Source: Modicisalibacter tunisiensis (lineage in GTDB: Bacteria; Pseudomonadota; Gammaproteobacteria; Pseudomonadales; Halomonadaceae). From it: DNA of 59,926 bases. The notes beneath the pieces were generated by a model. The model was not told the DNA's origin. It worked only from the letters and a program-made list of their open reading frames with translations, and did no database searches. Position 1 is the first letter of the stretch. Every line of letters starts with the position of its first letter. The position numbers and the translations under genes are program-made. Below, piece after piece: positions 3 through 54,798 of this stretch. Where the stretch lies: assembly GCF_020148005.1 (NCBI RefSeq), contig NZ_JAGXFD010000001.1, positions 1,424,620 to 1,484,545 on the forward strand. Reading direction: 5' to 3'.

Positions 3-89
3 TGGTGCCCAGGAGAGGACTTGAACCTCCACGTCCGTAAGGACACTAGCACCTGAAGCTAGCGCGTCTACCAATTCCGCCACCTGGGC
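3..89 (-). tRNA. tRNA-Leu (anticodon CAG)
   Basis: On the minus strand this folds as a class II tRNA of 87 nt with a genome-encoded CCA end. The 7-bp acceptor stem begins GCCCAGG. The D loop reads GGAATTGGTAGACGCG, the anticodon loop carries CAG, and a long variable arm (GTGTCCTTACGGAC) is present, as expected for tRNA-Leu. The T arm has GGTTCAAGTCC. It is transcribed away from rnr. Confidence 0.97.
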
Positions 90-19859: not shown

Positions 19860-19936
<77 letters not shown>

Positions 19937-41682: not shown

Positions 41683-42999
41683 TTGAAACCGGTGAGAGTT
41701 GGGATCTGTGGACTGGGGACCGTCGGCGGCGGCACCTTCAATGTGCTGATGCGCAATGCCGACGAGATCGCGCGACGCGCGGGGCGGCCGATCGTCATCG
41801 AGCAGATCGGTGCCCGCCGCGACAACCCCGAGTGCGACACCGCCGGGGTCAAGGTCACCGCGGACATCTTCGAGGTCGCGCGCAACCCCGACGTCGACGT
41901 GCTGGTCGAGCTGATCGGCGGCTATGACGTGGCCCGCGAGCTGGTGCTCACGGCCATCGAGCACGGCAAGCACGTGGTCACCGCCAACAAGGCGCTGATC
42001 GCCGTGCACGGCAACGAGATCTTCCAGGCCGCCCACGCCAAGGGCGTGATCGTCGCCTTCGAGGCCGCGGTGGCCGGCGGCATCCCGGTGATCAAGTCGC
42101 TGCGCGAGGGGCTGGGCGCCAACCGCATCCAGTGGGTCGCCGGCATCATCAACGGCACCGGCAATTACATCCTCACCCACATGCGCGACGAGGGCCGGGC
42201 CTTCGAGGACGTGCTCGCCGAGGCCCAGGCGCTGGGCTATGCCGAGGCCGACCCGACCTTCGACGTCGAGGGCATCGACGCCGCCCACAAGCTGACCATC
42301 CTCGCTTCCATCGCCTACGGCGTGCCGCTGCAGTTCGAGAAGGCCTACACCGAGGGCATCTCGCGGATCACCGCCGAGGACGTCGAGCAGGCCGACAACC
42401 TGGGCTACATCATCAAGCACCTGGGCATCTCCAAGCGCACCGAGACCGGGCTGGAGCTGCGCGTGCATCCCACGCTGATCCCCAAGGAGCGGCTGCTGGC
42501 CAGCGTCCACGGGGTCAAGAACGCCATCGCCGTGATGGGCGACGCCGTGGGACCGACCCTCTACTACGGCGCCGGCGCGGGGGCCGAGCCGACCGCCTCG
42601 GCGGTGGTCGCCGACCTGCTCGACGTGGCCCGCGACATCACTACCGCCCATCACTACCGGGTGCCGTACCTGGCCTTCAGCGGCATCCGCGAGGGTGACC
42701 AGAGCCTGCCGATCCTGCCCATGGAGGAGATCGTCACCGCCTACTACCTGCGCCTGCTGGCGGTGGACCGCCCCGGGGTGCTGGCGCGGGTGGCGACGAT
42801 CCTCTCCGAGCAGGGCATCTCGATCGAGGCGCTGATCCAGAAGGAAGCCACCGAGGGCGAACTGGTGCCGATCATCCTGCTGACGCACCGTACCCGCGAG
42901 CAGCACATGAACGAGGCGATCCGTCAGCTCGAGTCGCTGGCCGACATCGCCGGGCCGGTGATGCGGATCCGGGTCGAGTCCCTGGACGAACAGGAGTAA
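41683..42999 (+). CDS. hom: Homoserine dehydrogenase
   Basis: 438 aa, NAD(P)-dependent, converting aspartate semialdehyde to homoserine for threonine and methionine. Rossmann motif VGICGLGTVGGGTFNVL; catalytic region VVTANKALIAVHGNEIF and AEADPTFDVEGIDAAHKLTI; C-terminal ACT domain (LLAVDRPGVLARVATILSEQ) for threonine feedback. TTG start at 41683, 7 nt after GGGGGAG, gives the family N-terminus; the frame opens earlier at 41599. Monofunctional (no aspartokinase). Next gene on the strand is thrC; no thrB is present between them. Confidence 0.96.
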   Translation: MKPVRVGICGLGTVGGGTFNVLMRNADEIARRAGRPIVIEQIGARRDNPECDTAGVKVTADIFEVARNPDVDVLVELIGGYDVARELVLTAIEHGKHVVTANKALIAVHGNEIFQAAHAKGVIVAFEAAVAGGIPVIKSLREGLGANRIQWVAGIINGTGNYILTHMRDEGRAFEDVLAEAQALGYAEADPTFDVEGIDAAHKLTILASIAYGVPLQFEKAYTEGISRITAEDVEQADNLGYIIKHLGISKRTETGLELRVHPTLIPKERLLASVHGVKNAIAVMGDAVGPTLYYGAGAGAEPTASAVVADLLDVARDITTAHHYRVPYLAFSGIREGDQSLPILPMEEIVTAYYLRLLAVDRPGVLARVATILSEQGISIEALIQKEATEGELVPIILLTHRTREQHMNEAIRQLESLADIAGPVMRIRVESLDEQE

Positions 43000-43025
43000 G
43001 TCACCCCGAATCCGGGGCTGCGCTC

Positions 43026-43110
43026 GGCCATGCGTCGTTGAAACGCGGCTTGGACTGCTCATTTACCTCGGTAAACTCCGCGTCCGCGCCACGTTTCGTC
43101 TAGCCTGGCC
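43026..43110 (+). repeat. TGCTCA nested-hairpin element, copy A (after hom)
   Basis: 85-nt inverted repeat starting 27 nt after the hom stop. Outer arms GGCCA...GAAACGCGGC and its partner GCGCCACGTTTC...TGGCC pair imperfectly; GGAC/GTCC closes the inner part. The heart is TGCTCA (43056-43061), a TTTACC/GGTAAA stem around TC, then CTCCGC (43076-43081). Shares the heart and total size with copies B and C while the arms differ. Confidence 0.7.
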
Positions 43111-43192
43111 ATCGCTCGCCTCCGCCTTCGGCGCGACTTGCAGTATGGGCTTACAGTAGGGGCTGATAGCCCACGACTGGGTGGAAATCAAG

Positions 43193-51791: not shown

Positions 51792-52890
51792 ATGCAAGAG
51801 ATCAATCCGATCAATCACCTCATCAAGGACCTGTCCGAACGGACAGACGTCCTGAGGGGGTATCTTTGACTATGCCGAAAAGAAGGATCGGCTAGAGGAA
51901 GTCACCCGCGAGCTCGAGAACCCGGACATCTGGAACGACCCGGACTATGCCCAGAAGCTGGGCAAGGAGCGCGCCACCCTCGAGAACATCGTCGCTACCA
52001 TCGACCAGCTCGACCAGGGGCTGGCCGACAACCGCGAGCTGCTGGAACTGGCGGTGATGGAGGAGGACGAGGATACCGTCGAGGAGGTGAAGCGCGAGCT
52101 GGAAAATCTGCAGGCCAGCCTCGAGAAGCTCGAGTTCCGGCGCATGTTCGCCGGCGAGATGGACGAGAACAACGCCTACCTCGACATCCAGGCCGGCTCC
52201 GGCGGCACCGAGGCCCAGGACTGGGCCAACATGCTGCTGCGCATGTACCTGCGCTGGGCCGAGCATCACGGCTTCAAGGCCGAGATCACCGAGCTTTCCG
52301 CCGGCGAGGTGGCGGGCATCAAGTCGGCGTCCGTGCACGTCCAGGGCGAGTACGCCTTCGGCTGGCTGCGCACCGAGACCGGCGTGCACCGCCTGGTGCG
52401 CAAGAGCCCGTTCGACTCCGGCGGTCGTCGCCACACCTCCTTCGCCTCGGTGTTCCTGTCGCCGGAGGTGGACGACAGCTTCGAGATCGAGATCAACCCG
52501 GCCGACCTGCGCGTCGACACCTATCGCTCCAGCGGCGCCGGCGGTCAGCACGTCAACACCACCGATTCGGCGGTGCGCATCACTCACGAGCCCACCGGCA
52601 TCGTGGTGGCCTGCCAGAGCCAGCGCAGCCAGCACGCCAACCGCGACTTCGCCATGAAGCAGCTCAAGGCGAAGCTGTGGGAACACGAGATGGAGAAGCG
52701 CAACGCCGCCAAGCAGGCGGCCGAGGAGTCCAAGGCCGACATCGGCTGGGGCAGCCAGATCCGCTCCTACGTGCTGGACGACCAGCGCATCAAGGATCTG
52801 CGCACCGGCGTGCAGTCCAGCAGCTGCGAGAAGGTGCTGGATGGGGATCTGGATCAGTTCATCGTGGCCAGCCTCAAACAGGGCCTTTGA
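51792..52890 (+). CDS. prfB: Peptide chain release factor 2 with programmed +1 frameshift
   Basis: 365 aa after frameshift. Frame 1 (51792-51866, [20 protein letters not shown]...) ends at an in-frame UGA (51867-51869) preceded by an internal Shine-Dalgarno AGGGGG and CUU; ribosomes slip +1 and continue at GAC in the second frame (from 51868). This is the classic RF2 autoregulatory site, not a mutation. Downstream motifs: [20 protein letters not shown], the GGQ motif in [16 protein letters not shown], and the stop-recognition tripeptide region [20 protein letters not shown]. Reads UGA and UAA. Often followed by lysS, as here. Confidence 0.97.
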
Positions 52891-52907
52891 GCGACGCTAT
52901 TGCGCTC

Positions 52908-52994
52908 GACGAGGCGGTGTTGCGGTGTTGCTCATCATGCTCATGGACAGCCACGTCCACTGCGCTGATTCGCACCGCCGCGCCTTGCCTCGTC
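52908..52994 (+). repeat. TGCTCA nested-hairpin element, copy B (after prfB)
   Basis: 87 nt, starting 18 nt after the prfB stop. Outer arms GACGAGGC (52908-52915) and GCCTCGTC (52987-52994) pair perfectly, with GCGGTG/CACCGC inside. The heart is TGCTCA (52938-52943), a TGGAC/GTCCA stem around AGCCAC, then CTGCGC (52960-52965). A second TGCTCA precedes at 52929. A further outer pair GAGCGACG/CGTCGCTC lies at 52889-52896 and 52994-53001. Confidence 0.65.
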
Positions 52995-53075
52995 GTCGCT
53001 CATGACGCGTCTCGACCTGGGTGGCACCTTCATCGCGCCACAATCGATAGCGACCTTCCATAGACAGGCAGAACC

Positions 53076-54626
53076 ATGGCGAACCAGGACAACCAAGCGG
53101 CCGTCGAGGGCCAGGACGAGAACCGTCTGATCGCGGAGCGTCGTGCCAAGCTGGCGGCGCGGCGCGAGCAGGCCGCCGAGCGCGGCACGAGCGTCTTTCC
53201 CAACGACTTCCGTCGCGACAGCAGCGCCGCCGCGCTGCAGGCCGAGCTGGGCGACCGGGACAAGGAGGCGCTCGAGGCGCTGGACCGCCGGGCCGCGGTG
53301 GCCGGGCGCATCATGCGCAAGCGCGGGCCCTTCGTGGTCATTCAGGACGCGTCCGGCCAGATCCAGCTCTACATCGACAAGAAGGGCCTGCCGACCGAGA
53401 CCCTCGAGGACATCAAGGGCTGGGACATCGGCGACATCGTCGCCGGTCGCGGCCCGGTGCACAAGTCCGGCAAGGGTGACCTCTATGTCAAGATGGACGA
53501 GGCGCGGCTGCTGACCAAGAGCCTGCGCCCGCTGCCGGACAAGTTCCACGGCCTGACCGATCAGGAATCGCGCTATCGCCAGCGCTACGTCGACCTGATC
53601 ATGAACGCCGACTCGCGGCGGGTGTTCGAGACCCGCGCCCGGGTGATCAGCGCCATGCGCCGGTTCTTCGAGGACCACGGCTTCATGGAGGTCGAGACGC
53701 CGATGCTGCAGCCGATTCCCGGCGGCGCCACGGCCCGGCCCTTCATCACCCACCACAACGCGCTGGATCTCGACATGTACCTGCGCATCGCCCCCGAGCT
53801 GTATCTCAAGCGGCTGGTGGTGGGCGGCTTCGAGCGGGTCTTCGAGATCAACCGCAACTTCCGCAACGAGGGGCTGTCGACGCGGCACAACCCCGAGTTC
53901 ACCATGATCGAGTTCTATCAGGCCTACGCCGACTATCACGACCTGATGGATCTCACCGAGGCCATGCTGCGCGAGGTGACGCGCTCCGTGCTGGGCACCA
54001 CCACGGTGACCAACACCGTGCGTGACGCCGACGGCGAGGTGCTGGAGACCTTCGAGTACGACTTCGGCCAGCCGCTGCGCCGGCTGAGCGTGTTCGACGC
54101 CATCCTCGAGTACAACCCGGATATCCGGGCCGAGGCGCTGGCCGACGAGTCCGCCGCCCGCCAGATCGCCGAGCGTCTGGATATCGACGTCAAGGACGGC
54201 TGGGGCCTGGGCAAGGTGCAGATCGAGATCTTCGAGAAGACCGTCGAGCATCGCCTCCAGCAGCCGACCTTCATCACCGACTACCCGACCGAGGTCAGTC
54301 CGCTGGCGCGGCGCAAGGACTCGGATCCCTTCGTCACCGACCGCTTCGAGTTCTTCGTCGGCGGCCGCGAGATCGCCAACGGCTTCTCGGAGCTCAACGA
54401 CGCCGAGGACCAGGCCGAGCGCTTCGCCGCCCAGGTGGCCGAGAAGGAGGCCGGCGACGACGAGGCGATGTACTACGACGCCGACTACATCCGCGCCCTC
54501 GAGCACGGCCTGCCGCCCACCGCGGGCGAGGGGATCGGCATCGACCGGCTGGTGATGCTGCTGACCGACAGCGCCTCGATCCGCGATGTGCTGTTGTTCC
54601 CGGCGATGCGCCCTTCCGGAGATTGA
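53076..54626 (+). CDS. lysS: Lysine--tRNA ligase (class II)
   Basis: 516 aa. N-terminal OB anticodon-binding domain ([40 protein letters not shown]). Class II motif 1 region [20 protein letters not shown], motif 2 [20 protein letters not shown] and motif 3 [20 protein letters not shown] with the C-terminal FPAMRP. Follows prfB by 185 nt, an interval filled mainly by repeat copy B. Confidence 0.98.
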
Positions 54627-54641
54627 AGGCGCTGCGCGTCG

Positions 54642-54726
54642 GCCAGACCTCGTGGCGCGGGGGTTCGCCTTGCTCATGTACCACCTCGTACATTCCGCCG
54701 GCGAATCCCCGCGCGCCTGGTCTGGC
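54642..54726 (+). repeat. TGCTCA nested-hairpin element, copy C (after lysS)
   Basis: 85 nt, starting 16 nt after the lysS stop. Arms GCCAGACC...CGCGGGGGTTCGCC and GGCGAATCCCCGCG...GGTCTGGC pair over about 27 nt with few mismatches. The heart is TGCTCA (54671-54676), a TGTAC/GTACA stem around CACCTC, then TTCCGC (54693-54698). The most perfect of the three copies. Confidence 0.75.
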
Positions 54727-54798
54727 GCAGGCTCGCCGCCTTCCGCGTGTTCCGGTGGGGCGGCGCATTCCCGCACAAGAGGGCGCGGTCGGGAAGTG

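What the first reader, a model, noticed from the sequence alone, without database searches (positions are those of the whole stretch)
54642..54726. A family of ~85-nt nested hairpins with a fixed TGCTCA...YTCCGC heart and covarying arms
Three elements (43026-43110, 52908-52994, 54642-54726) are 85, 87 and 85 nt. Each consists of long outer inverted arms, then TGCTCA, a short stem (TTTACC/GGTAAA, TGGAC/GTCCA, TGTAC/GTACA), a loop, and CTCCGC, CTGCGC or TTCCGC. Only the TGCTCA and YTCCGC boxes are alike; arms and inner stems differ completely but still pair. Pairing kept across different sequences is the signature of a selected structure, not of a copied repeat. All three lie 16-27 nt downstream of a stop codon, in the same orientation as the gene. 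I recall similar TGCTCATTTAC...GTAAACTCCGC sequences in other marine gammaproteobacteria but know no name or function. Options: 3'-end RNA element, transposon-like structural repeat with strand-specific ends, or a protein-binding DNA cruciform.
Basis: partly seen in the sequence, partly recalled or inferred. Interest (0 to 1): 0.8.

Follow-up and report, generated by a model that had tools for sequence, protein, structure and literature searches.

The report
Mobile folded repeat at stop codons
The three hairpins are copies of a widespread, gene-less mobile DNA element that folds on itself, often lands in or just after stop codons, and keeps its fold while its letters change; what moves it is unknown.

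Summary
The three hairpins belong to one family of ~118-nt nested hairpins (~145 nt with outer arms). This genome has 38 copies at E<1e-7; hits occur in 109 of 274 genomes sampled from the class and 66 of 249 from the phylum. Arms covary around fixed loops (9 own copies: 96.4% paired, 55 double-change cells against 16 shuffled).

It is a mobile repeat and a selected structure. Relatives hold empty sites; at the clearest, a TGA stop was split after its T and the element's first letters, AG, rebuilt TAG. 25 of the 30 best own copies start within 20 nt of a sense stop codon. The prfB-lysS copy stands at the same place in 10 of 14 genus genomes with compensating arms.

The strand opposite to the gene folds better in 114 of 123 elements and carries most wobble pairs, against a plain sense 3'-UTR RNA. 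No link to RAYT genes, integron integrase or Rfam was found.

Best reading: a non-autonomous palindromic element, conserved as a folded antisense strand, moved by an unidentified enzyme, sometimes kept in place. Closest analogue: Yersinia YPAL.

The parts
43011..43127 (+). Element copy 1, between hom (homoserine dehydrogenase) and thrC; fixed boxes CTGCGCTCG / TGCTCA / CTCCGC / TCGCTCG
   Evidence: R1 116 bits, E 2.1e-28 (G000:C1:1467630-1467746). Of 12 genomes in which hom was located, own included, only own and G275 have it. Gene names from reading the translations, not from a family search.
52893..53011 (+). Element copy 2, between prfB and lysS
   Evidence: R1 111.3 bits. Same place in 10 of 14 genus genomes, own included, with compensating arms.
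54625..54744 (+). Element copy 3, directly behind lysS; the copy the finding names; diverged, middle GCTC/TCG loop not evident
   Evidence: R1 66.9 bits. Lost in G275, eroded in G284 (34 bits), present behind lysS in G280 and G289.
42997..42999 (+). Stop codon TAA of hom; model start 11 nt on
52888..52890 (+). Stop codon TGA of prfB; model start 2 nt on
54624..54626 (+). Stop codon TGA of lysS; overlaps the model start

Best explanation
The hairpins are copies of a gene-less, palindromic mobile DNA element of about 145 bp. Shown: it inserts precisely (no target duplication, or at most a 2-bp CT) at CT|RR-like sites; its left end starts with AG, so at the two sites where the empty relative ends the gene with TGA, the filled gene ends with TAG. 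Shown: its arms change in step while the inner and middle loops and the GCGTT / CGCCTTG boxes stay. Shown: the fold is better on the strand antisense to the upstream gene, where the middle loop of most copies reads as tandem G.A. Inferred: the asymmetric target sets the orientation, and insertions that rebuild a stop codon survive because the protein stays intact. Inferred: the antisense strand, as folded single-stranded DNA, is what an unidentified recombinase or transposase recognises, in the manner of attC or IS200/IS605 ends but with different boxes. Inferred: some copies, such as prfB-lysS, were then kept in place for a host role, perhaps in mRNA decay or transcription between the genes.
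For: Empty sites: own L048 CTGTTCT-[element]-GAGGCC against G275 CTGTTCTGAGGCC. Of 8 recent own sites queried in G275, 5 give one contiguous flank-to-flank hit, 2 are filled, and 1 (L071) lies in a repeat whose other copies in G275 (5 hits, 3 of them aligned) run on uninterrupted through CT|AAGCTCTG. L053 is empty in G275 and L054 in G284. A copy in the other genus G287 is 99% identical. Placement: 25 of 30 own copies start within 20 nt behind a sense stop codon; named set 45 of 76 on the left, 19 of them at 9-12 nt, against 27 of 74 on the right, 4 at 9-12 nt; family loci 19 sense of 23 with an upstream gene called, 28 examined. Structure: each 0 of 500 shuffles on the covariation score. Strand: 114 of 123 (RNA parameters) and 118 of 123 (DNA) fold better on the antisense strand; wobble on antisense against sense 55:25, 27:7 and 6:3 in three alignments.
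Against: No mobilising gene was found: Y1_Tnp genes are not flanked by elements; integron integrase passes its cut-off in only 4 of 25 family genomes and not in this one; no neighbouring protein cluster spans more than 9 of 118 loci and the six representatives scanned are common families, proteins under 150 aa not looked at. Ends differ between lineages, and some Pseudomonas copies show 3-bp direct repeats (TGA, TAA or TTA in 4 of 10 of one end type, by eye), which looks like an ordinary DDE transposase. Other gammaproteobacteria show no left-side excess (10 of 28 left, 12 of 28 right). Long persistence at prfB-lysS is more than a mobility signal needs. Wobble counts are not independent between related rows (distinct pair-type events 26:18, 15:7 and 3:3). 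The outer tandem loop is kept in only 5 of 29 rows from other genomes. The single-stranded DNA step is inference only.
Confidence: 0.5

Rival explanations
1. Ordinary MITE moved by a DDE transposase of IS5 or IS630 type acting on double-stranded terminal repeats; pairing of the arms is only a by-product, kept up by quasi-palindrome template-switch correction at replication forks.
For: Lineage-specific terminal inverted repeats and TA / TNA / CTAG at junctions; an IS630 copy has itself inserted in the CTAG at one element's end; empty sites. The IS5/IS630 target habits are recalled.
Against: No element with these ends carrying a transposase was seen; the listed plasmid hits are all single pieces. 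Template-switch correction would also erase the mismatched middle and inner loops, yet these are conserved (TC/TC in 48 and 38 of 60). Own-genome insertions show no clear duplication.
Confidence: 0.25
2. Sense-strand 3'-UTR RNA element controlling mRNA 3'-end stability, processing or termination of the upstream gene.
For: Position and orientation; conservation in place between prfB and lysS with compensating changes; the sense strand also folds strongly.
Against: The sense strand folds worse than the antisense strand in 114 of 123. G.U on the sense strand is rarer than A.C, 25:55 and 7:27, opposite to an RNA selected on that strand. Copies are gained and lost. A run of five or more T near the right end occurs in 1 of 30 own copies.
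Confidence: 0.17
3. REP/BIME element moved by a REP-associated tyrosine transposase (RAYT).
For: Palindromic, intergenic, multicopy; GGAG lies 5' of the inner stem on the antisense strand.
Against: 51 loci around Y1_Tnp genes (1 own, 50 from other element-bearing genomes) hold only 2 weak matches. 9 of the 35 element-bearing genomes searched have no Y1_Tnp match.
Confidence: 0.03
4. Integron attC sites.
For: Same geometry: directly behind stop codons, antisense strand folds, structure kept while sequence varies (attC features recalled).
Against: Integron integrase over cut-off in 4 of 25 family genomes and not in this one, though 22 of the 25 have elements. Own copies are dispersed, not in cassette arrays. 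The GTTRRR-like box lies in the wrong half (by eye; box recalled).
Confidence: 0.03

Closest known systems
YPAL / RU-2 (Yersinia palindromic sequences, 168 bp)
   Same: Gene-less palindromic intergenic element; empty and filled sites compared; targets span or lie next to dyad symmetry; [quoted passage not shown] That YPAL tends to lie closely behind stop codons is recalled and comes from no call.
   Different: Target duplications of 3-26 bp. The published RU-2 sequence has none of 8 box strings of this family on either strand (exact strings only).
ERIC and other bacterial MITEs (RUP, Correia/NEMIS)
   Same: About 100-200 bp, non-autonomous, long imperfect hairpin, TA at the ends (Table 1 passage of PMC2229807).
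   Different: Listed there for one genus or family each (ERIC also for V. cholerae in a table passage of PMC2267715); here arms covary across genera and the core crosses phyla. No autonomous partner found. Not compared by sequence.
Integron attC sites
   Same: Folded antisense strand behind a stop codon; structure conserved rather than sequence (recalled).
   Different: Different boxes; no integrase over cut-off in this genome.
P. fluorescens repeat families R178 / R30 (101 and 120 bp)
   Same: Similar size, intergenic; R178 listed with 11-bp internal inverted repeats (table passage of PMC2718517). May be members.
   Different: Sequence not seen; membership not tested.

Membership tests
[quoted passage not shown]
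   38 own copies E<1e-7; 17-60 in each of 13 other same-genus genomes.
[quoted passage not shown]
[quoted passage not shown]
   For example L053, AGGCATTGTCTGAAAA.. / ..TTTTCAGACAGTGCCT; other lineages have other ends.
[quoted passage not shown]
   0 to 2 bp in own copies; 3-bp direct repeats in 4 of 10 Pseudomonas copies of one end type, by eye.
[quoted passage not shown]
   None seen on plasmids; own genome not searched for ends alone.
REP/RAYT | RAYT gene flanked by the repeats | tested here: not met
   51 loci, 2 weak hits at 23.6 and 19.1 bits.
Integron attC | Integron integrase in the genome | tested here: not met
   TIGR02249 best own match 81.9 bits, cut-off 265.
YPAL/RU-2 | Sequence similarity to the published 168-nt unit | tested here: not met
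   None of 8 box strings on either strand; exact strings only, no alignment made.
Rfam families | Match at gathering score | tested here: not met
   Only two tRNAs in the window. Over 8 element loci at E<=0.1 one sub-threshold microRNA-family match beside an element; around copy 3 only sub-threshold matches.
Intrinsic terminator | Hairpin followed by a U-tract on the sense strand | tested here: not met
   A run of five or more T within 45 nt of the model end in 1 of 30 own copies (L065).

The most novel reading that the evidence does not exclude
A phylum-crossing class of minimal mobile elements that exist only as a strand-specific DNA fold: the folded antisense strand is the substrate of an undescribed recombinase, arms are free to drift as long as they pair, and the AG left end makes stop codons safe landing sites because it rebuilds TAG.
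Probability: 0.3. Interest if true: 0.85.

Novelty: new variant of a known kind. Interest (0 to 1): 0.6.

Why it matters
If right, a large family of folded mobile DNA for which I found no name sits behind many genes in Halomonas, Pseudomonas and relatives and, at lower score, elsewhere. It would give genome annotators a model for a common 3'-flank feature. It gives a clean case in which a mobile element spares its host by rebuilding the stop codon it breaks. It also predicts an undiscovered structure-reading enzyme that can be sought directly.

Tried and rejected
REP/RAYT link: rejected. Integron attC: rejected. Rfam: nothing. An autonomous element with the same ends in G294: the four partial hits fetched with their contig ends (L361-L364) lie at or within 40 bases of the end of their contig, and others start at base 1-3, so this looks like an assembly effect. 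The IS630 gene beside a P. amygdali copy has its own ends and inserted in the flanking CTAG. Plasmid carriers: 15 of 72,556 records for the own type, 19 and 9 for two Pseudomonas types, without a partner gene in the six regions opened (one of them has no annotation). Recurrent neighbour genes: only common families among six scanned. The first gene calls were trained on antisense frames and were discarded. Papers: literal-sequence searches (listings, 20 of 72 and 30 of 51 papers shown) and term searches (listings, 20 of 520, 20 of 99, 11 of 11, 20 of 132, 11 of 11, 0) showed no description of this family; most subscription papers are not held, so this is not proof that it is unpublished. Passages only were seen of PMC2229807, PMC2759123, PMC2718517 and PMC2267715.

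Counts made by eye: the 12 recent own copies (L048, L050-L054, L059, L061, L062, L064, L066, L071; chosen by their ends from the 30) and their left junctions; the 3-bp repeats; the organism labels.

Full report
What is there. The three hairpins exist at the stated places. The two boxes alone are weak evidence in the window: TGCTCA..YTSCGC matches 5 times against 2.36 expected; in the whole genome 130 matches stand against 42 for the pattern read backwards. Reading out from the strong matches showed a larger unit. On the sense strand it reads, from outside in: CTGCGCTCG, arm, GCGTT box, arm, GCTC, arm, TGCTCA, inner stem and loop, CTCCGC (or CTGCGC), arm, TCG, arm, CGCCTTG, arm, TCGCTCG. A 9-copy alignment, A2, gives 34 pairs with 96.4% of cells paired, 55 double-change cells (16.3 shuffled, 0 of 500) and a covariation score of 0.533 against 0.069-0.132 when slid. 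Of the 13 copies aligned I dropped L042, L043, L044 and the 54626 copy, for an extra insert or divergence; five further copies seen (L033, L036, L040, L041 and the second one of L032) had been left out before as redundant or degenerate. The structure was drawn by hand from these sequences.

How many. The model R1 finds 42 own matches at E<=1, 38 of them below 1e-7. It matches 109 of 274 genomes drawn from the class, own included; 21 of 24 other family genomes, with 4-60 copies where present; and 66 of 249 of the phylum, own included. The two large scans share some genomes and cap copy numbers at 13-14. The exact core TGCTCATTTAC-N3..8-GTAAACTSCGC hit 119 stretches in named genomes before the scan stopped at its limit, and 80 loci were returned. 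By title 35 are Pseudomonas or Stutzerimonas and 8 are Halomonas, Salinicola or Chromohalobacter. 16 bear Bacteroidota names, all metagenome bins; one of these (Pedobacter, 60% GC) is probably mis-binned. Four of the 16 were folded: by eye L169, L164 and L155 keep the inner and middle loops and L107 the inner one. In viral contigs the same pattern gave 9 stretches.

Covariation at scale. 60 copies, 31 own and 29 from other genomes of the class: 94.2% paired, 417 double-change cells against 95.9 shuffled, 0 of 500. 36 matches from 34 loci of family, order and class relatives, some of them orthologues of own copies: 96.0%, 148 against 33.5, 0 of 500. These two alignments were fitted to the model, which favours pairing; A2 and A5 were made by MAFFT and were not.

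It moves. Several own copies are near-identical and share ends such as AGGCATTGTCTGAAAA...TTTTCAGACAGTGCCT. In G275 the L053 site is empty. Eight other own sites were queried in G275 by joined flanks. Five gave one contiguous hit (L048, L050, L062, L064, L066) and two were filled (L051, L061). L071 turned out to lie in a repeat: its joined flanks match five places of G275 at 81%, and three of these, aligned, run on uninterrupted as GGCGCTAAGCTCTG where the own copy has GGCGCCT-[element]-AAGCTCTG. Base-level reading is exact for L048; L053, L062 and L064 keep their length to within a base but differ by one to a few letters at the right junction; L050 has 11 extra bases in the empty genome; the L066 and L051 comparisons did not resolve in the script. 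L054 is empty in G284. At L048 the empty gene ends TTC TGA; the filled one reads TTC TAG, where AG is the element's start, and GA continues beyond its right end. G284 likewise ends the L054 gene with TGA where the own gene ends with TAG. L053 lies right behind a hairpin, CCAACGCCGGGCGA..TCGCCCGGCGTTGG. A 99% identical copy in another genus of the family points to recent transfer.

Where it lands. Of the 30 best own copies, 27 have the nearest upstream gene in sense orientation, 25 of them within 20 nt of its stop and 14 at 9-12 nt (genes called by a codon-usage script). A cruder test that only asks for a long open frame ending nearby gives, for own copies, 26 of 28 on the left and 19 of 28 on the right; for the named and viral set 45 of 76 on the left, 19 at 9-12 nt, and 27 of 74 on the right, 4 at 9-12 nt; for other gammaproteobacteria 10 of 28 and 12 of 28, no excess. 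In 28 family loci, 19 of the 23 with an upstream call are sense and 17 of these lie at -7 to 12 nt. Of 12 recent own copies chosen by eye, all have T and 10 have CT at the left junction, and 7 lie in a stop codon. A simple null helps: if the target is CT|AG or CT|GA and insertions in coding sequence are lost, stop codons make up 27 of 78 tolerated sites in the window (0.35); with CT|RR the share is 0.18 and with T|RR 0.10. So site preference plus purifying selection explains much, perhaps all, of the stop-codon habit, and the asymmetric site would explain the orientation; both are inference.

Selection in place. The prfB-lysS copy is at the same place in 10 of the 14 genus genomes, whose lysS loci were all searched. 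All ten have CTGC where most own copies have CTCC, which fits descent rather than repeated insertion. Pairing is 96.7% with 77 double-change cells against 25.9 shuffled, 0 of 500; the count of further pair types is not above shuffles (385 of 500 reach it). The lysS copy by contrast is lost in G275 and eroded in G284, and the hom-thrC copy is found only in own and G275 among 12 genomes in which hom was located; in 9 of the 20 stretches fetched hom was not found. So copies come and go, but at least one is kept.

Which strand. On the strand antisense to the gene the loops can read as tandem GA against GA. The matching TC/TC on the sense strand is present in the outer, middle and inner loop in 31, 48 and 38 of 60 rows; the inner loop reads TC/TG in 20 more, and the outer loop is kept in 26 of 31 own rows but only 5 of 29 others. 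Of 123 dereplicated elements, 114 fold better on the antisense strand with RNA parameters (mean 7.2 kcal/mol) and 118 with DNA parameters (133 elements of 100-140 nt before dereplication, out of 163 rows of A3 and A4). Setting aside one invariant U.G pair, wobble on antisense against sense is 55:25 in A3, 27:7 in A6 (two weak tandem rows left out) and 6:3 in A5; by rows 29:12, 19:4 and 3:2; distinct pair-type events 26:18, 15:7 and 3:3. Rows are related, so p-values are only indicative. A sense-strand RNA should show the reverse. This favours folded single-stranded DNA, or an antisense RNA; it does not prove either.

What it is not, and what is open. No RAYT link (51 loci, 2 weak hits). No integron integrase over cut-off in this genome. 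No Rfam family. No recurrent mobilising gene among the neighbours looked at. The mover is unknown. Ends differ between lineages, so more than one mover is possible. The nearest described element, YPAL, is similar in build and habit but shares none of the box strings tested. On re-checking, L071 became further evidence of insertion; I left the odds as they were.

Noticed in passing
L036, L041, L043, L044, L294, L295: Some copies carry an extra 16-19-nt module CTCGnnCGCGAGTCCGATC (a mini-hairpin; a variant in L041) at the GCTC loop, in different genomes.
   Followed up: partly
L409 (1501-1860), L131, L123, L135: Two or three element copies in tandem, same orientation, 0 to about 70 nt apart.
   Followed up: no
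L112, L113, L141, L170: Longer Pseudomonas copies hold an added segment with TGTTACT, in three of the four followed by CCCGTTGGTCGTTGCG, probably a further hairpin arm.
   Followed up: no
L289, L290, L418, L428: In two genus genomes (G281, G279) the lysS 3' flank holds heptamer runs (GAGCTAC-like), and the hom-thrC gap holds such runs in G281 and related inverted GAGC-rich sequence in G279, where other genomes have the element.
   Followed up: no
L376 3149-3175: An IS630-family element of P. amygdali has inserted in the CTAG at the end of one copy.
   Followed up: yes
L071 (G000:C1:1001551-1001684): This copy sits inside another dispersed repeat, of which G275 has at least five copies; three of them, aligned, are uninterrupted.
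   Followed up: partly
G000:C1:80171-80494: The only Y1_Tnp (RAYT-like, 171 aa frame) match of the genome; no element in the locus fetched.
   Followed up: yes
window 6-89 and 19863-19936, - strand: Two tRNA genes.
   Followed up: no
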